The position numbers and the translations under genes are program-made. From positions 2,952,187 through 3,016,186 of the forward strand of contig JADCRB010000026.1 in assembly GCA_021464245.1 (NCBI GenBank): a stretch of 64,000 bases of DNA, in the 5' to 3' direction. Of this stretch, positions 53,536 through 63,618 are shown piece by piece. The DNA is from Carallia brachiata (taxonomy: Eukaryota > Streptophyta > Magnoliopsida > Malpighiales > Rhizophoraceae). Every line of letters begins with the position of its first letter. Positions within the stretch are counted from its first letter, which is position 1. The notes under the pieces are model-generated. The model did not search any database, was not told where the DNA came from, and saw only the letters and a list, made by a program, of their open reading frames with translations.

Positions 53536-54175
53536 TGTAAACTAATAATAAAATAAAATAAATAAATAAATAAATAAATGGTTGGCAGCTGCCAACCTAA
53601 TTAATGCCACCAATCATTTGGTTGGTAGCAGGCAGGCAGTTGGGGGAGGCCTATAAATGGCCTCCCCCCAAATTAGATGGTGCAGCAGCAAGAGAAGAAA
53701 AAAAAGAAAAAAGAAAAGCAGAAGCAGCAAGAAAAAAAAAAGAAGAAAAAAGAAAAAAAAAGAAAAAAAAAAAAAAAGAGAAGTAAAAAAATCAAATTTA
53801 CAAATCCGGCTGGGATTAAGTCTCATACGGCCCTCAGCAAAATCCAGGCAACTCATCCGAGAACAAGTCCATTCGACCCTCGGTGAAATTAAGTCAGATC
53901 AGCTCAGATCGAGTCTCTACGGGTTCCTAAACGTAGTCAAAACATCCAAATCAGATCACAGTTTCAGTCTATCCAGTTCAAGAAAAAGCGGTGGAAATTA
54001 TTTCTGTCAAGATCAAGCTCGTGCAGCCCTTGACGGAGTCAAAAAAGGAACACTAATCGGAGGATCTACGGAGATCGACCCCACGTAAATTTTCTTTTAC
54101 TTTACAATTTTTATTTGTAATTTATTTTTGTATTTTCGAGTTTAATTGTTTTAGGCTCGAAATTTACGCTTTACA
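53536..54175 (+). repeat. 5' LTR
   Basis: 640 bp, beginning TGTAAACT and ending CTTTACA. It contains an AAAT repeat, the 18-bp palindrome GGTTGGCAGCTGCCAACC (53580-53597), a TATA box enclosed in a perfect stem (53642-53668), an A/G-rich leader (53690-53790) and a conserved 3' half matching 63240-63618. Lysine-rich reading frames across the leader are low-complexity artefacts. Confidence 0.95.
53642..53668 (+). promoter_or_regulatory. LTR core promoter: TATA box in the loop of a perfect hairpin
   Basis: GGGGGAGGCC (53642-53651), then TATAAAT (53652-53658), then GGCCTCCCCC (53659-53668). The arms are exact reverse complements of 10 bp with the TATA box as the 7-base loop. The 3' LTR keeps the same arrangement (63092-63098 for TATAAAT), with a longer C run. 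Transcription of the element would be expected to start 25-35 bp downstream. Confidence 0.75.
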
Positions 54176-54200
54176 AATTTTTGGCACGCTCGGTGGGACA
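54176..54200 (+). other. Primer-binding site region
   Basis: Immediately after the LTR comes a 5-base spacer, then TTGGCACGCTCGGTGGGAC. A TGGCxCxC...GTGGGxC sequence a few bases inside the 5' LTR is the usual place and look of a tRNA primer-binding site in Tat-type elements. I do not name the tRNA. Confidence 0.65.
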
Positions 54201-54365: not shown

Positions 54366-55656
54366 ATGGCACCGAAAAGGTACAACTGCTGCCACAAAAA
54401 GAAGGCAACGGCTCCATTGCCTGCATCAACTACCCTACCTGGGTACGCAGGTCCAGAAACCCGGGGACGGACACAATTTCTTGCCGTCCAAACCCGACAA
54501 AAGTCGAAATGGAGAGTCCACAGCTCGCACAACAGGATCTCTCCCCTGACTCTCTTGCCGCATGGAGGAGTCGATCACCCACCCCGATCGAAGTCGGGGG
54601 CAACACGACGAAGCCTGCTCAACAAATCCAACTCACACACACAGAAGAATCAGAAGAGTTTCTCCCCCAGTCTTTCCCGGAGCCTCATCTGTTGCCGTCA
54701 TGATGACCAACACAACCAGCACAGAGGAAAGATTTCAGAATTGGAGAACAAAATTTTGCAGCTGATCAGAGTCGTGGAGGAAAAAGATCAACAGATCGCA
54801 GCTCTCAAAGGAAAAGCCCCGATCCAAGTTGATCCCGAATCCGCGAGGAGCAACCATATCCACCCGGTTTCACTCCAGAAGCCACACCAGCCGACGTCTT
54901 CCCTGCAGAAAAGCGACCAGGTAGTTCTACACAGCTGCCACCCTCAAATAGCTTCGCTATCTGTTCAACAATTGCAGGAAATGATAGCCAATACGATCCG
55001 ACTGCAACAAGCTACATCCTTCCAAGGATCACAGATGTACGTCAAACCGTACACCAGACGGATCGAAAGTCTCAACATGCCTTGGGCTACCAGCCGCCCA
55101 AATTTCAACAATTCGACGGACGAGGCGATCCCAAACAGCACATCGCCCACTTCGTTGAAACCTGCAACAACGCAGGGACTTACGGAGATCTCTTGGTGAA
55201 GCAGTTTGTTCGTTCACTCAGGGAGACCGCTTTCACCTGGTTCATAAATCTTGAACCAGAATCGATCGACAGTTGGGAACAGCTACAACGAGAGTTCCTC
55301 AACAGATTTTTCAGCACTCGAAGGACGGTAAGTATGATGGAGCTTACCAGCACCAAACAAAGGAAAGGAGAGCCCGTTGTCGAATACATCAACAGATGGC
55401 GTGCCCTCAGCTTGGACTGCAAAGATCGCCTGACGGAGACTTCTGCCGTGAGATGTGCATCCAGGGAATGCATTGGGAGCTGTTATACATCCTGCAGGGT
55501 GTCAAACCCCGAACTTTCGAAGAACTGGCGACCCGCGCACATGATATGGAGATAAGCATCCAGACTTCCGGAGGCACGGTTCCCATCCAGTTGGACCAGC
55601 AAGGGGGCAGAAGGGAGATTAAGAAACCCAACAGCTCCGGAAAAGGAAAGAAGTGA
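54366..55656 (+). pseudogene. Retrotransposon Gag, frameshifted
   Basis: The N-terminal part (54366-55199 frame) is Ser/Gln-rich with a Glu/Lys segment, ISELENKILQLIRVVEEKDQ, that may form a coiled coil. Near 55085 the homology moves to another frame, giving FDGRGDPKQHIAHFVETCNN, then SLRETAFTWFINL and WEQLQREFLNRFF, the core of the Ty3/gypsy Gag domain. A second shift near 55445 leads to CIQGMHWELLYILQGVKPRT and FEELATRAHDMEISI, ending at a stop at 55656. Gag forms the virus-like particle in the cytoplasm. At least two frameshifts make this copy non-coding as read. Confidence 0.85.
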
Positions 55657-56359
55657 TGACTGTTGAAGCCGCACCAGTAAAAGTGGGCGCCAAAGCTAAG
55701 GTAAATCCTCCGACCCAAATAACTCAGCCAAAACAACAGGAAAGGCGGAAGGTGACATTGCGAGAGTGGAGCAGAAGCAGTATCCATTCCCCGACTCAGA
55801 CGTCCCGACATTCTTGAACAACTCTTGGAGGCGAAGCTGATCGAACTCCCAGAGTGCAAGCGGCCGAATGAAAAGGATCGAGTCAGCGATCCAGATTCTG
55901 CAAATATCACCGGATAGTAAGTCATCCAACCGAGAAGTGTTTCGTCCTGAAGGAGCTAATCATGAAGCTCAAAAGCCAGAATAAAATCATTCTGGACCAG
56001 GAAGGCATAACCTCGCAAACCAGACCACCATCACTTCAAAACCATCAGAAGAGTGACACACCGTAAGGAGGAGCCGCTCGACAACAAAAAGTCGACAACG
56101 GAGAAGGTATATGAAGCTCTCCAAACCCTTCTCGCTAACCCTCAGCTGTTTATAGCTTTGCAATCAACAGAAGTGTGGCAAAATCAAGTCAGCAATACTC
56201 TCCAGACCTCAGCTGAACCTCTGCCATCAAATGATTCTAACTCAGCGGAGCAACAGGCGGCCAAAATCACGTCGGATGTTACTCTGCTATCTCATTTTCA
56301 GATGAGGATCTCCTGCTGGGGTCCAAACCCCACAATCGGCCGCATGTATCAGGCTATGT
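55657..56359 (+). other. Gag-protease linker region
   Basis: Low-complexity linker with broken frames between gag and protease. A 102-residue frame (56053-56361) runs EALQTLLANPQLFIALQST and carries no known domain. The protease begins in another frame just after it. Confidence 0.5.
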
Positions 56360-57088
56360 GAAAGAACAGAAGGTCGACGTATTCTGATCGACGATGGCTC
56401 AGCAGTCAATATTATCCCAAAATCCACCATAAAGGAGCTCGGCATCGGCATTGATGAATTATCAGACAGCCGCTTGATGATTCATGGCTTTAATCAAGGA
56501 GGACAGAAAGCAATTGGGATGATTCGCTTGGAGCTAACTATCGGTAATCTCACTTCTAGCACTCTATTTCACGTGATTGATGCACGTACCACATATAAGA
56601 TGTTGCTAGGACGACCGTGGATTCATGGAAATGGAGTTGTGCTCTCAAGCCTGCATCAGTGCTTTAAGTACAATGGTGGCGTTCAAAAGGTCAATGCTGA
56701 CTTAAAGCCGTTCGATGATGCTGAATCACATTTGGCGGATGCAGTCTTCTACACTGACACAGACAATCCGGAGATCATTCCGTCAAAAGCTACTTGGACT
56801 GGGGGCATCCACAAAAAGGGAAAAGCTGTCGAAGAACCTGCCAATGCCCAACCCCAGGCTCCAACAAATGAAAAGCTGCCACAGCCTGCTGAACTCGTCC
56901 GAAGGATGTTGCATCTTCAAGCTCCACTCCAGTCCTACGCTATGTGCCGAAGTCACGACGCTCAGAAGGTCAACCCCCTTTCTCTTATTGTATTGATCTT
57001 AAACAGGAGCAAGGTCATAGCCAACCCAAAACAAAGGAGCTGCACACAACCTGAAGGAGACTTACACTCTGCCGATACCAAAGATTGA
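56360..57088 (+). pseudogene. Retroviral-type aspartic protease domain
   Basis: From about 56360 one frame reads RRILIDDGSAVNIIPKSTI, then LMIHGFNQGGQKAIGMI, then FHVIDARTTYKMLLGRPWIH. This is the usual run of a Tat-type protease: the active site is seen as DDGSA (a D-[ST]-G variant), then a flap region and a LLGRPW signature. The frame then runs through a linker to a stop at 57088. No ATG-led ORF covers the active site, as expected for a domain inside a polyprotein. Downstream pol starts after further frameshifts. Confidence 0.8.
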
Positions 57089-57496: not shown

Positions 57497-59132
57497 GTGA
57501 AGGAGGCTCCCCCGGAACTTGAAGATGGTGGCCAAGCAACTGTTGATGAACTCAAGGAGGTCAATCTTGGCTCTCCGGAAGATCCTCGACCTACATTTGT
57601 AAGTGCTTTACTTACTGCAGAAGAAGAGCAAGAATATGTTCAGGTATTAAGTCAATACAGGGACGTGTTCGCATGGAGTTACAAAGAAATGCCTGGACTT
57701 GACCCAAAATTGCGGTGCATCGTCTAGCAGTAAAGAAGGGTGTCGTTCTGTCAAGCAGCCACAACGACGGTTCCGCCCGGAACTCATTCCACAAATCGAG
57801 GAGGAGGTGAACAAGCTGATCAATGCTGGCTTCATCCGAGAGGTCACCTACCCAACGTGGATTGCCAACATTGTCCCGGTAAGAAAGAAGAATGGACAGT
57901 TGAGGGTATGTGTTGATTTTCGAGATCTTAACAAGGCCTGCCCGAAAGATGACTTTCCATTGCCCATAACGGAGATCACAGTCGATGCAACAACGGGTCA
58001 CGAAGCATTGTCCTTCATGGATGGTTCTTCAGGCTATAACCAAATCAGAATGGCACCAGAAGACGAGGAGTTGACAGCATTCCGCACCCCAAAAGGTATA
58101 TACTGCTACAAAGTTATGCCGTTTGGATTGAAAAATGCTGGCGCCACTTATCAACGTGCTATGCAAAAAATTTTTGATGACATGCTGCACAAGATTGTAG
58201 AATGTTATGTTGATGACTTAGTTGTAAAGACTAAGAAGCGCAAAGACCACCTCGAGGATCTCAAGACAGTGTTCGAAAGACTTCGGAGGCATCAGCTCAA
58301 AATGAACCCTCTCAAGTGCGCATTCGGTGTCACATCAGGAAAGTTTCTTGGGTTCGTGGTGCGCCATCGTGGAATCGAAGTTGATCAGTCAAAGGTTGAG
58401 GCAATTCAAAAGATGCCTGAACCTAAAAACCTGCACGAGCTGCGAAGTCTACAAGGAAAGCTGGCCTACATTCGCCGTTTCATCTCCAATTTAGCTGGGA
58501 GATGTCAACCTTTCCATCGGTTGATGAAGAAGGATGTCAACTTCGAGTGGGACGAAGCTTGCAGCAAAGCCTTTGCGAGCATAAAGAAGTACCTTTCCAA
58601 TCCACCGGTCCTAGGTGCTCCAATTCAAGGAAAGTCGTTGATTCTCTACATTGCAGCGCAGGAAAGATCTTTGGGAGCCTTGCTTGCACAGGAAAACGAG
58701 CAGGGAAAGGAAGTTGCTCTGTACTACTTGAGCAGAACACTAAACGGTCCGGAGCTGAGTTATTCGCCCATTGAAAAGACATGTCTAGCACTGTTCTTTG
58801 CCATTGACAAGCTGAGGCACTACATGCAAGCTCACACGGTACGTCTCATTGCCAGAGCTGATCCTGTCAAATATATCTTATCCAGACCAATCTTGTCAGG
58901 ACGACTTGCCAAGTGGGCAGTAATCCTACAAAGCTACGACATTGTCTACGTGCCTCAAAAAGCAGTCAAAGGACAAGCTCTAGCAGACTTCCTTGCAGAT
59001 CACCCTGTTCCGTCAGATTGGGAGTTCACAGATGATCTTCCAGATGAAGAGGTCTTTTACATTGAGCACTACCACCATGGACGATGTTCTTTGATGGTGC
59101 AGCAAGGCGTGATGGTGCTGGTGCCGGCATAG
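57497..59132 (+). pseudogene. Reverse transcriptase and first RNase H
   Basis: The pre-RT segment (YRDVFAWSYKEMPGLDPK) ends near 57727. A shift then leads into a 477-codon frame from 57699. Key RT blocks are VPVRKKNGQLRVCVDFRDLN, PFGLKNAGATYQRAMQ and the catalytic YVDD at 58206-58217. RNase H follows (LILYIAAQERSLGALLAQ, YSPIEKTCLALFFA) and the connection ends in QALADFLADHPV. The RT domain itself is uninterrupted and of normal length, with all catalytic aspartates visible (FRDLN region and YVDD). The frame is lost at about 59078, before the second RNase H. Confidence 0.93.
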
Positions 59133-59509
59133 TGTTTGTCACTCCTCAACGACAAATACTACCATATGCTATCATTCTCGGTGAGTTATGTTCAAATAAT
59201 GTTGCTGAATACCAGGCTTTGATCATTGGTCTTCAAATGGCTGTCGATATGAAGATTCCAACTATAGAAGTCCATGGAGATTCCCAGCTCGTCATCAACC
59301 AACTTACAGGATTGTATGACGTGAAGAAAGAGGACCTTGCGCCTTACCATCAACGTGCTCGACAGCTAATGGATGAATTTGAAAGCATCACCTTGGAGCA
59401 TGTGCCTCGACGAGAAAACACTCAGGCAGACGCGTTGGCTAACCTGGCTACTTCTCTTGCAAAGTCAGAAATCCAGGCTACAGTTGTTGCGTATGTCAGA
59501 AATGGATAG
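59084..59509 (+). pseudogene. Second RNase H (dual RNase H of Tat lineage)
   Basis: The frame reads MFFDGAARRDGAGAGIVFVT, then CSNNVAEYQALIIGLQMA, VHGDSQLVINQL and ENTQADALANLA. These give the four metal-binding residues D-E-D-D (DGA, AEY, GDS, ADA), so it is probably structurally complete. A duplicate RNase H placed between RT-RH and integrase is known from Tat-type elements. It is separated from the RT frame by a frameshift at about 59078 and ends in a stop at 59509. Confidence 0.9.
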
Positions 59510-60818
59510 TGCCCAAAGGATGATGGATGAAGAAACTACAGCAGCCAACGCTGTATCTGTACGTCTCGCGGAGGACGAGGATTGGCGTCAACCAATCATT
59601 GACTACCTACAGCACGGGAAGCTGCCTGAAGATCGTCGTCATAAGACAGAAATTCAACGACGAGCTCCCCGTTCAATATCTCAAGGATGCTCTGTATCGA
59701 AGGTCTTTTGATGGAGTTTACTTCGCTGCCTAGCCAATGAAGAGGCAAAACAGGCTCTCACTGAAGCACATTCTGGTGTTTGTGGCGGACATCAATCGGG
59801 GCCTAAGTTGCACTTCCAACTCAGAAGGATGGGATACTACTGGCCAACCATGGTACGTGATTCAATTGAGTTTGCTAAAACTTGTCAAGCTTGTCAATTT
59901 CATGCAATTACATACATCAACCACCGGAGCCACTGCATCCAACTGTCTCATCTGGCCCTTTGAAGCTTGGGGTCTCGACTTAGTGGGGCCCTTGCCAAAG
60001 TCATCCCTGGGTCACCTGTACATCCTGCAGCAACCGACTACTTCTCAAAATGGGCTGAAGCCATTCCACTTAGAGAGGTAAAGAAGGAGCATGTTGCCAA
60101 TTTCATCCGGACTCAGCTGATCTATCGCTATGGAGTCCCTCGATTCATCATCACTGATAATGGTAAGCAGTTCTACAACAGCTTAATCGACAAGCTCTGC
60201 GAGAAGTTCAAGTTCAAGCAGTACAAGTCATCCATGTACAATGCCCCAGCAAATGGCTTGGCGAAGCATTCAACAAGACCTTATGCAACCTGTTGCGGAA
60301 GGTAGTCTCTAAATCCAAAAGAGATTGGCATGACAGAATTCCGGAGGCATTATGGGCGTATCGTACAACTTACCGGACTCCAACACAGGCGACGCCATAC
60401 TCACTTGTCTACGGTGTCGAAGCAATACTGCCGTTGGAAACACAGATTCCATCTCTCCGCGCATGGCTGTTCTGGAAGGACTCACACAGGAGGAGAATGC
60501 TCGCCTACGTCTGGATGAGTTAGAAGCCTCGATGAAAGGAGGCTCGAAGCACAACAGCAACTTGAGTGCTACCAAGCCCGGCTCACCAACATTCAACCGC
60601 AGGGTCCGCCTCGATCTTTTCAAGTTGGAGATCTTGTTCTTGCAGTGCGACGGCCCATCAACATGAAGCATCGGCCTGGTGACAAGCTTACTTCCAAATG
60701 GGACGGGCCATACTTAGTGCAGGAGGCCTACACTCACAACGCTTACATGCTGTCAGACCAAGAAGGCGTCCGAATCGGCCCAATCAATGGTAAATTTCTG
60801 AAACAGTATTATGTGTAA
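59510..60818 (+). pseudogene. Integrase, frameshifted
   Basis: Pieces in several frames give the HHCC zinc-binding region near 59760-59910 (AHSGVCGG, LRRMGYYWPTMVRD, CQACQ). The first catalytic Asp lies in WGLDLVGPLPK (about 59970) and the second in YGVPRFIITDNGKQFYNSL (about 60140-60185). The expected Glu-containing segment appears near 60262 only after another shift. The C-terminal module ends with KWDGPYLV and FLKQYYV and a stop at 60818. Integrase inserts the cDNA into host DNA. At least three shifts make this copy inactive as read. Confidence 0.85.
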
Positions 60819-60823
60819 ATATG

Positions 60824-60846
60824 TTTAAAAAAAAAAATAAAAAAAA

Positions 60847-60935
<89 letters not shown>

Positions 60936-61262
60936 CGAAGTCCCGATCTGAAAGACCAAGCGAAAGTCCAAACCCAAACACTTGAGCCCAATTCAGAGTC
61001 AAAACCCAAACACTCAACCAAATCCAAACGAAAATCAAACCCAAACACTCAAGAAAACCAAATCCATCCAAACTCAAACACTCAACCCAATCTAGATCCA
61101 AAACCCAAACACTCAACCCAAATCCAAGTCCAAAACCCAAATTCAAGTCCAAAACCCAAACACTCGACCCAAATCCAATCCAAAAGTCCGAAAACCAAAA
61201 AATTCCAAGTTCCAAACACAGTCCAGAACCCAAGTTCAAAATCCAATCCAACTCCTGGCCCG
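60824..61262 (+). repeat. Poly-A tract and CCAAA-type degenerate repeat
   Basis: A near-pure A tract (about 60824-60933) follows the integrase stop. It is followed by about 300 bp of loose units such as CCAAACCCAAACACTCAACC. The deleted element has the same two blocks in the same relative place. Confidence 0.85.
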
Positions 61263-61388
61263 CATGAGTATAAACTGTGAACGGCCCAAAAATATAAAAC
61301 CGACGGAGGGTTTGATTCTGAAAGTCAGCATCAATCTCAACCGATCTTCACCACATACCAAGACCTTTGCTCCTCTGCCGCAAGAAAG

Positions 61389-62001
61389 ATGGAACCAGTT
61401 GCAGAACCTCAAGACAAGGGAGAAGAAAGGTCACCTCGCACAAGGTGGCAACCGACCATGGCACAACTGCAAATTTTGGAGGAAGTCTTCTACAACGATG
61501 GAGGTATTGTCCCTAACTCTACACAGATTCTCCAACTTGTCTCACGACTTCGCCCGCTAGGGGCAGTCGAAGGAAAAATGTATATTTTGGTTCCAGAATG
61601 AGCGGAGACATAGGGAAACAGTGGCGCTGAGAGATGGTATTTCCAAAGCACAGCCTGTTGTTCCTATAGTAGATCTCACCAGTACAGCTTCACCCTCAAA
61701 TGAAGCCGGCCCAAGTTCTACCACTGCAATGGTCTCTCCACGGTACGTTCATCAAAGCCGTAGCCTATGGGAGCATACATACTGGTCCTGGTGGTTTCAC
61801 GGAGTCAGCCAAGGGTTCATCCCTCCTAGATACTTAAGTCTAGGAGGAATTTTTCTAGCACACAGGAGTCATTCCGGCGAAATGTTGCCTCTCTTTCAAG
61901 AATATTCCGGCAGCATCAACCAGCCGGAAAGCGACGTCAACATCATCGGCCCACCAGACGAGGCCGAGCTTGACTTGGAGCTGCGCCTTGGGCCCCGCTA
62001 G
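61389..62001 (+). pseudogene. Captured WUSCHEL/WOX-like homeobox gene, one frameshift
   Basis: From the ATG at 61389 the frame gives TRWQPTMAQLQILEEVFYND, then VPNSTQILQLVSRL and LGAVEGK. These are WOX homeodomain helices 1-2 and the start of helix 3. Within helix 3 the DNA is two bases short, so the hallmark WFQN (61588-61599) is read in the next frame. That frame continues without a stop to 62001. It includes MLPLF at 61882-61896, a near-match to the WUS-box core TLPLF (present intact in the sister copy), and LDLELRLG at 61969-61992, an EAR-like repression motif just before the stop. WUS/WOX5 proteins have the same three motifs in this order. The sequence upstream (about 61291) has a TATA-like AAAAATATAAAAC. 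The homeobox shows no intron. Confidence 0.82.
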
Positions 62002-62924: not shown

Positions 62925-62942
62925 CCTTGAAGTGGGGGCATT
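62925..62942 (+). other. Polypurine tract
   Basis: TGAAGTGGGGGCATT ends directly before the 3' LTR. The deleted element has the equivalent sequence, read on the minus strand, just inside its 3' LTR (near 14664-14675). This is where plus-strand cDNA synthesis is primed. Confidence 0.7.
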
Positions 62943-63618
62943 TGTAAACTAATAATAAAATAAAAATAAAAAAAATAAATAAATAAATAAATAAATGGTT
63001 GGCAGCCGCCAACCTTGAAGGTTGGCAGCTGCCAACCTAATTAATGCCACCAACCATTTGGTTGGTGGCAGGCAGGCAGCTGGGGGAGGCCTATAAATGG
63101 CCTCCCCCCCCCCCCCCAAATTAGATGGTGCCAGCAGCAGAGAAGAAAAAGCAAAAAAAGAAAGGCCAGCAGCGAAGCACGCAAGAAAAAAAAAAGAAAA
63201 AAGAAAAAAAAAAAGAGAGATAGTAAAAAAAAAATCGAAATATTACAAATCCGGCTGGGATTAAGCCTCATACGGCCCTCAGCAAAATTCAGGCAGCTCA
63301 TCCGAGAACAAGTCCATTCGACCCTCGGTGAAATTAAGTCAGATCAGCTCAGATCGAGTCTCTACGGTTCCTAAATGTAGTCAAAACATCCAAATCAGAC
63401 ACAGTTTCAGTCTATCCAGTTCAAGAAAAAGCGATGTAAATTATTTCTGTCAAGATCAAGCTCGTGCAGCCCTTGACGGAGTCAAAAAAGGAACACTAAT
63501 CGGAGGATCTACGGAGATCGACCCCACGTAAATTTTCTTTTACTTTACAATTTTTATTTGTAATTTATTTTTGTATTTTCGAGTTTAATTGTTTTAGATT
63601 CGAAATTTACGCTTTACA
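62943..63618 (+). repeat. 3' LTR
   Basis: 676 bp. Compared with the 5' LTR it has a second copy of the 18-bp palindrome (62997-63014, one base changed, and 63020-63037) and a run of about 15 Cs after the TATA hairpin. A further 10-bp-arm palindrome lies at 63046-63069. The 3' halves are nearly identical. It is followed by the GAAGA duplication. Confidence 0.95.

What the first reader, a model, noticed from the sequence alone, without database searches (positions are those of the whole stretch)
61389..62001. A WUSCHEL/WOX-type homeobox gene carried inside a Tat-type LTR retrotransposon
Downstream of pol, and between it and the 3' LTR, the element encodes RWxPTxxQLxILEE, QIxQLxxxL, VEGK and WFQN (WOX homeodomain), then MLPLF (WUS-box-like), then LDLELRLG (EAR-like). 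Three independent motifs in the WUS/WOX5 order make chance resemblance unlikely. Extra ORFs are known in Tat elements, but I know of no report of a stem-cell transcription factor as cargo. Such capture could spread WUS-like repressors or WUS-targeting small RNAs through a genome. The copy has a frameshift in helix 3.
Basis: partly seen in the sequence, partly recalled or inferred. Interest (0 to 1): 0.93.

Follow-up and report, generated by a model that had tools for sequence, protein, structure and literature searches.

The report
WUSCHEL-like gene inside a plant retrotransposon
A family of jumping genes in a flowering plant carries hundreds of copies of a gene resembling WUSCHEL, the switch that keeps plant stem cells alive, and many of the copies examined still look able to make the protein.

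Summary
Confirmed. Window 61389-62001 lies between pol and the 3' LTR of a Tat-type Ty3/gypsy element (LTRs 53536-54175 and 62943-63618, TSD GAAGA). It is one frame-shifted copy of a WUS-like WOX gene; its first frame matches solved WUSCHEL at E=1.6e-8. Of 65 copies read, 40 are open from ATG to the C-terminal motif. Genome-wide pattern counts are 647 (helix 1), 714 (uninterrupted recognition helix) and 704 (integrase), backward controls 0. So the WOX gene appears to be a standing part of the family.

It keeps the WUS base-reading residues, a WUS-box and an EAR-like end, without introns. Two amplified subfamilies differ most sharply in a roughly 230-260-bp homeodomain tract, which points to recombination. 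Amino-acid changes between them are fewer than neutral (36 against 48.9, 0 of 4000), though a stricter test is not significant.

There is a precedent: a meeting report (PMC10714607) describes over 1000 WOX copies, mostly LTR-flanked, in Vigna riukiuensis. This host is not Vigna; its own WUS groups with Erythroxylum. The likeliest reading is a captured, protein-coding accessory regulator; its benefit to the element is inferred.

The parts
53536..54175 (+). 5' LTR, TGTAAACT...TTTACA, preceded by GAAGA
54182..54199 (+). primer binding site, TGGCACGCTCGGTGGGAC
   Evidence: read by eye; the tRNA was not identified
54833..55555 (+). gag piece, PF03732 E=6.3e-13
56306..57088 (+). protease-like piece, PF13975 E=0.003 (below its cut-off)
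57651..59132 (+). RT and RNase H (PF00078 1.6e-34, PF17917 3.7e-23)
   Evidence: best database hits 78-82% identical over 87-90% of the query in melon and Actinidia
59066..59509 (+). second RNase H (PF13456 6.5e-26), between RH and integrase, the mark of angiosperm Tat elements
59712..60818 (+). integrase in broken frames (PF17921 1.4e-10, PF00665 4.9e-8; PF24626 1.7e-4, below its cut-off)
61293..61300 (+). TATAAAAC, possible internal promoter 96 bp before the ATG; TATAAAA within about 130 bp upstream in 63 of 65 copies
   Evidence: function inferred
61389..62001 (+). WOX gene copy, frame broken inside helix 3 of the homeodomain
61437..61620 (+). homeodomain (in two frames); the tract that differs between subfamilies is about 61476-61737
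61879..61902 (+). WUS-box-like EMLPLFQE (ETLPLFPE or EILPLFPE in 16 of 20 distinct open sequences)
61969..62001 (+). EAR-like C-terminus LDLELRLGPR and stop
   Evidence: Pfam EAR model not significant
62931..62942 (+). polypurine tract AGTGGGGGCATT
   Evidence: by eye
62943..63618 (+). 3' LTR, followed by GAAGA

Best explanation
The segment is a WUS-like WOX coding sequence that a Tat retrotransposon took up in intronless form between pol and the 3' LTR. It is now a standing gene of the element family and multiplies with it. Shown: the position, the sense orientation, an abundance similar to integrase, an open frame in 40 of 65 copies read and an uninterrupted recognition helix at 714 genomic places, the conserved base-reading residues, and a deficit of amino-acid changes between the most multiplied sequences of two subfamilies. 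Inferred: the open copies make a nuclear DNA-binding protein that binds TGAA/TAAT sites and recruits TOPLESS-type corepressors through its WUS-box and EAR-like end. This would help the element by keeping its host cells stem-like, or by tuning expression of the element or its silencers in meristem cells that feed the germline. The protein is probably made from an internal TATA promoter or from the LTR transcript. The window copy itself cannot make a complete homeodomain. About 0.95 for captured WOX gene, about 0.65 for protein function under selection, about 0.3 for this particular benefit.
For: Homology. Placement: of 11 host WOX homeodomains only the two WUS genes share the cargo's extra loop residue; the cargo clade (99/100) falls on the WUS/modern side (70/90, weak), away from the WOX9/11/13 types (19 chosen rows). 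Capture without introns: host WUS has three exons, the cargo one frame. Multiplicity: 647 / 714 / 704, controls 0. By eye from these listings, 19 of 23 exact integrase places on contigs C1 and C19 have a listed exact WOX place on the same strand within 1 kb. 40 of 65 copies open. Selection: most multiplied A and B sequences show 36 amino-acid changes against a null mean of 48.9 (0 of 4000 as low), homeodomain 12 against 19.4 (P=0.0003); pairwise dN/dS 0.46 overall, 0.30 in the homeodomain. DNA readout: R38, Q89, N90 and R94 of WUS (PMC7203112, passages) are kept in 20 of 20 distinct open sequences (my alignment of the numbering). The position of S36 is R in all 20; in that paper S36R raised TAAT affinity six-fold without disturbing the TGAA band shift. 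Upstream TATA in 63 of 65.
Against: The stricter count of fixed A/B codon differences shows no significant deficit (Fisher p=0.16 overall, 0.18 homeodomain). Constraint is far weaker than in integrase (dN/dS 0.46 against 0.057, the latter from copies with a long open integrase frame, which biases it down) and absent in the C-terminal part (0.94). WUS-like sites are not enriched in the LTR (TAAT 12 against 7.9, P=0.08; TTAATG 1 against 0.55; TGAA 3 against 8.6). 23 of 65 copies are broken and 2 lack the ATG. Sampling leaned to good homeodomains (35 copies chosen by profile score) and to the window's subfamily (30 by identity). No expression data. The parental WOX gene is not resolved (stem of 1.6 changes per site).
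Confidence: 0.72

Rival explanations
1. Passenger: the WOX sequence was transduced once and amplified by a recent burst; frames are open only because the copies are young, and the protein does nothing for the element.
For: LTRs of the window copy differ at 11 of 474 sites outside the A-rich stretch, under about 1 My at a recalled rate of 1.3e-8 per site per year; the 40 open copies are only 20 distinct sequences; fixed-difference test not significant.
Against: The homeodomain is at most 51% identical to any of the 11 host WOX homeodomains compared, so the capture is old or fast-evolving, yet the frame survived in both subfamilies over dS 0.23 (0.41 in the homeodomain) with fewer amino-acid changes than neutral.
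Confidence: 0.25
2. RNA-level function: the cargo feeds small RNAs or a sponge that acts on host WUS/WOX transcripts.
Against: Longest exact match between seven cargo sequences and 11 host WOX loci is 14 nt; the best short alignments are about 81-86% over 35-37 nt. Constraint is at the amino-acid level.
Confidence: 0.04
3. The homeodomain difference between subfamilies reflects positive diversifying selection rather than recombination.
For: Divergence is centred on the DNA-binding domain, and B loses several basic residues after WFQN.
Against: Synonymous change is raised in the same tract (dS 0.41 in the homeodomain, 0.07 in the C-terminal part, 0.063 in integrase), and most 60-bp steps outside it are 90-100% identical (scan). 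That is expected for a swapped segment.
Confidence: 0.15
4. Chance resemblance, integrase-downstream filler, or a host WOX gene into which an element inserted.
For: Pfam alone is sub-threshold on the broken window copy.
Against: WUSCHEL hit 1.6e-8 on the first frame alone and 5.5e-19 on open copies; 647 genomic matches, with an open integrase end shortly upstream in 43 of 65 copies read.
Confidence: 0.01

Closest known systems
LTR-flanked WOX amplification in Vigna riukiuensis and V. marina (Naito, in meeting report PMC10714607, passages read; preprint 10.1101/2022.03.28.486085 not held, not read)
   Same: WOX genes in very many copies, mostly between identical LTRs with TSDs; over 1000 in V. 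riukiuensis.
   Different: Legumes; this host's WUS groups with Erythroxylum, not Vigna. The passages do not name the element lineage, WOX clade, frame status or selection. Whether the two elements are one family could not be tested.
AlkB/2-ODD-carrying Tat (Ogre-like) elements of Phalaenopsis (PMC9289625; abstract, the section on non-canonical domains and passages read)
   Same: Host-type gene fixed as an extra ORF in a Tat lineage, in many copies.
   Different: RNA demethylase rather than a transcription factor. That screen of 121 genomes lists B3, LOG-like YgdH and others; its main text does not contain 'homeo' or 'WUS'; supplements not read.
Retand elements with pol-3'LTR ORFs (PMC11963269; abstract, part 1 of 2 of one results section and a word search)
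   Same: Tat branch, average LTR 635 bp, ORF between pol and 3' LTR.
   Different: There most ORFs in that region are antisense (mainly TRP28) and no sense ORF encodes a known domain. Here the ORF is sense and a homeodomain; none of six frames tested in that region matched TRP28.
WUSCHEL (6ry3; PMC7203112)
   Same: Homeodomain with extra loop residue, R38/Q89/N90/R94, WUS-box, EAR-like end.
   Different: 44-51% identical to host WUS genes and the nearest WOX in the homeodomain, R at the S36 position, shorter, intronless, hundreds of copies.

Membership tests
Tat lineage of Ty3/gypsy elements | additional RNase H domain, in angiosperms between RH and integrase | tested here: met
   PF13456 6.5e-26 at 59066-59509, between RT/RH and integrase; rule from PMC6317226 passages
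Tat lineage of Ty3/gypsy elements | LTRs with TSD, gag-PR-RT-RH-INT order | tested here: met
   protease match below its cut-off
Retand subclade | antisense TRP28 ORF between pol and 3' LTR | tested here: not met
   three antisense and three sense frames of the window between 60784 and 62930 give no Pfam match; other copies not tested
Ogre subclade | tRNA-Arg primer site (PMC9289625 passages) and extra ORF upstream of gag (recalled) | not tested
   primer-site letters seen, tRNA not identified
WOX, WUS/modern clade | WOX homeodomain above Pfam cut-off | tested here: met
   4 of 4 open copies; WUSCHEL 5.5e-19; the broken window copy alone stays below the cut-off
WOX, WUS/modern clade | WUS-box TLxLFP-type motif (definition recalled) | tested here: met
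   TLPLFPE or ILPLFPE in 16 of 20 distinct open sequences, TLSLFPE in 2, ILPLFQE in 1, lost in L014; MLPLFQE in the window copy
WOX, WUS/modern clade | EAR motif LxLxL near the C-terminus | tested here: met
   LDLEL in 19 of 20 distinct open sequences, LGLEL in L022; the Pfam EAR model is not significant
WOX, WUS/modern clade | tree position with WUS | tested here: inconclusive
   on the modern side, 70/90, parent unresolved
Vigna LTR-WOX elements | same element family | not testable with these tools
   no Vigna element sequence available; no Vigna among the named proteins of the best 120 RT relatives

The most novel reading that the evidence does not exclude
The element encodes a working WUSCHEL-type regulator as an accessory protein, comparable to retroviral transactivators, that reprograms or marks stem cells feeding the germline. 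Element lineages trade homeodomains by recombination and so change target choice. WOX cargo has arisen, or moved between plants, at least twice (Vigna and this lineage).
Probability: 0.27. Interest if true: 0.92.

Novelty: new variant of a known kind. Interest (0 to 1): 0.74.

Why it matters
Plant retrotransposons must jump in cells that give rise to germ cells, and in plants these come from WUS-maintained stem cells. An element family with hundreds of copies of its own WUS-like gene, many of them open, would be a direct handle on how mobile elements exploit meristems. It also warns that WOX family counts in plant genomes may include element genes. Its occurrence outside Vigna makes repeated or mobile WOX capture testable by simple comparison.

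Tried and rejected
Host species: attempted through matK, but only decayed or fragmentary nuclear copies were found and no protein search was left; the host stays 'WUS nearest Erythroxylum'. I first took the host for Vigna because of the meeting report; one search ruled that out. LTR self-binding sites: no enrichment. Small-RNA targeting: no long matches. LTR dating on whole LTRs gave K2P 0.077 because of A-rich misalignment; excluding that stretch gave 8/370 and 3/104 differences. LTR pairs of other elements: B_C73 0.010 and 0.013, A_C1 0.0165 (right part) and 0.073 (left part), D_C23 0.09, B_C78 0.20 with doubtful alignment; five of nine elements gave no pair. No structure prediction was made, as the allowed inputs did not clearly include these loci. 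Element copies lacking WOX were not looked for beyond the counts. Rows left out: the 90 A-B pairs omit the seven-copy A sequence (L019 group) because of a naming slip; include it. The integrase comparison used 14 of the 43 copies with an integrase end. The WUS tree used 26 chosen proteins plus the host, the homeodomain tree 19 chosen rows.

Full report
What is there. The window lies at G000:C86:2952187-3016186 of a 337.5-Mb plant assembly of 164 contigs. At its right end sits an LTR element of about 10.1 kb: LTRs 53536-54175 and 62943-63618, both TGTAAACT...TTTACA, flanked by GAAGA on both sides. Gag, a weak protease, RT/RNase H, a second RNase H and integrase follow in order. The second RNase H between RH and integrase is the mark of angiosperm Tat elements (PMC6317226, passages). 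The best RT relatives are 78-82% identical, in melon and Actinidia, and many other eudicots follow (where only the 7966 candidates sharing most words were scored), so the backbone is ordinary.

The cargo. Between integrase and the 3' LTR, frame 61281-61601 matches solved WUSCHEL at 1.6e-8 and STENOFOLIA at 2.7e-6, and the continuing frame to 62001 carries WFQN, MLPLF and LDLELRLG but hits nothing meaningful by itself. The frame breaks within helix 3. Pfam alone is below its cut-off on this broken copy. Four of four uninterrupted relatives exceed it (2.6e-9 to 9e-13), and a profile of the four reaches WUSCHEL at 5.5e-19.

How many. A search of the host genome with the host WUS homeodomain scored 150 of 1391 candidates: two WUS genes, seven places at 67-72% identity, and 141 places at 51-54%; those of the latter that were read are element copies. 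Pattern counts over the whole genome: helix-1 36-mer, up to 3 mismatches, 647; recognition-helix 35-mer, up to 1 mismatch, 714; integrase 36-mer, up to 3 mismatches, 704; reversed-pattern controls 0 each. Read by eye from these capped listings, 19 of 23 exact integrase places on contigs C1 and C19 have a listed exact WOX place on the same strand within 1 kb. Of 65 copies read (35 chosen by homeodomain score, 30 by identity to the window, the window's own included), 40 are open from ATG to the C-terminal motif, 23 are interrupted and 2 lack the ATG; among the 30, 24 are open. 43 of 65 show an open integrase end 434-882 bp before the WOX ATG; the other 22 were not followed. The 40 open copies are 20 distinct sequences.

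Origin. Besides the two WUS genes and the seven WUS-clade-like places, at least two host WOX genes of the WOX9/13 type were read. The cargo homeodomain is 44-51% identical to the WUS genes and the nearest other WOX, with the extra loop residue that only the two WUS genes have among 11 host WOX homeodomains. The tree puts the cargo clade (99/100) on the modern side but does not resolve the parent. Host WUS has three exons; the cargo has one frame, so capture of a spliced message is likely (inference). Among 5.8 billion proteins the best of 14 hits were a WUSCHEL-like protein of Deinandra (50% over 33% of the query) and Prosopis WUSCHEL (45% over 42%) (the search needs shared 5-residue words).

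Function. WUS base readout uses R38, Q89, N90 and R94, and S36R raises TAAT affinity six-fold (PMC7203112, passages). All 20 distinct open sequences keep all four and have R at the S36 position. Between the most multiplied A and B sequences there are 36 amino-acid changes against 48.9 expected (0 of 4000 simulations as low); homeodomain 12 against 19.4, P=0.0003. Pairwise dN/dS is 0.46 overall, 0.30 homeodomain, 0.60 linker, 0.94 C-terminal part, and 0.057 for integrase in copies chosen for a long open integrase frame. The stricter fixed-difference count gives p=0.16 and 0.18, so the case for selection is moderate. A TATAAAA lies within about 130 bp before the ATG in 63 of 65 copies. LTRs are not enriched in WUS-like sites.

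Homeodomain swap. A and B are 93-100% identical through integrase (no fixed codon differences over 195 codons between 9 A and 5 B copies), mixed (75-98%) in the low-complexity spacer, 90-97% in the first part of the cargo, 72-90% from the loop of the homeodomain into the linker, then mostly 90-100% again, with dips to 67-83% near +780 to +840 and +1260. A scan of two A/B pairs places the tract at about 61476-61737, with 45-49 differences in 228-258 bp against 43-59 in 835-890 outside; 0 of 100 shuffles reach it in either pair. Synonymous divergence is raised in the tract too, so recombination between element lineages fits better than selection alone.

Comparison. The meeting report PMC10714607 (passages) describes over 1000 WOX copies in Vigna riukiuensis and many in V. 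marina, mostly surrounded by identical LTRs with TSDs. A V. reflexo-pilosa genome paper notes WOX expansion in that tetraploid (PMC10357499, passages). This host's WUS is 56-57% identical to Vigna WUS and 64-66% to Erythroxylum, and groups with Erythroxylum with moderate support (87/80), so it is not Vigna. Main-text word searches of four papers on extra domains, extra ORFs or plant LTR classification found no 'homeo' or 'WUS'. In the listings of ten paper searches and the passages opened I found only the Vigna reports; subscription journals and preprints are mostly outside that library.

Verdict. The finding is real and stronger than stated, since many uninterrupted copies exist. It is a new variant of a known kind: host-gene cargo in Tat elements, with WOX cargo already noted in Vigna. 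What the protein does for the element is open.

Noticed in passing
window 61476-61737, loci L012, L019, L050, L078: A homeodomain tract of about 230-260 bp differs sharply between two subfamilies on an otherwise similar backbone; probably a recombinant tract.
   Followed up: yes
window 60824-61200: Long poly-A run followed by a low-complexity CCAAACAC-like stretch between integrase and cargo; variable among copies.
   Followed up: no
L099 and ten other places: matK matches in the host genome are decayed or fragmentary nuclear copies; 11 matches, the best with 17 stops inside.
   Followed up: no
L001-L008: Other homeodomain genes of the host ranked above the element copies (L006 is the WOX13-like gene also read as L048); not studied.
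   Followed up: no
L027, L032: The host has two WUSCHEL genes with 96% identical homeodomains; Erythroxylum also shows two.
   Followed up: partly
PMC9289625: That survey lists LTR elements carrying a LONELY GUY-like (cytokinin) domain; with WOX cargo this suggests that meristem regulators recur as retrotransposon cargo.
   Followed up: no
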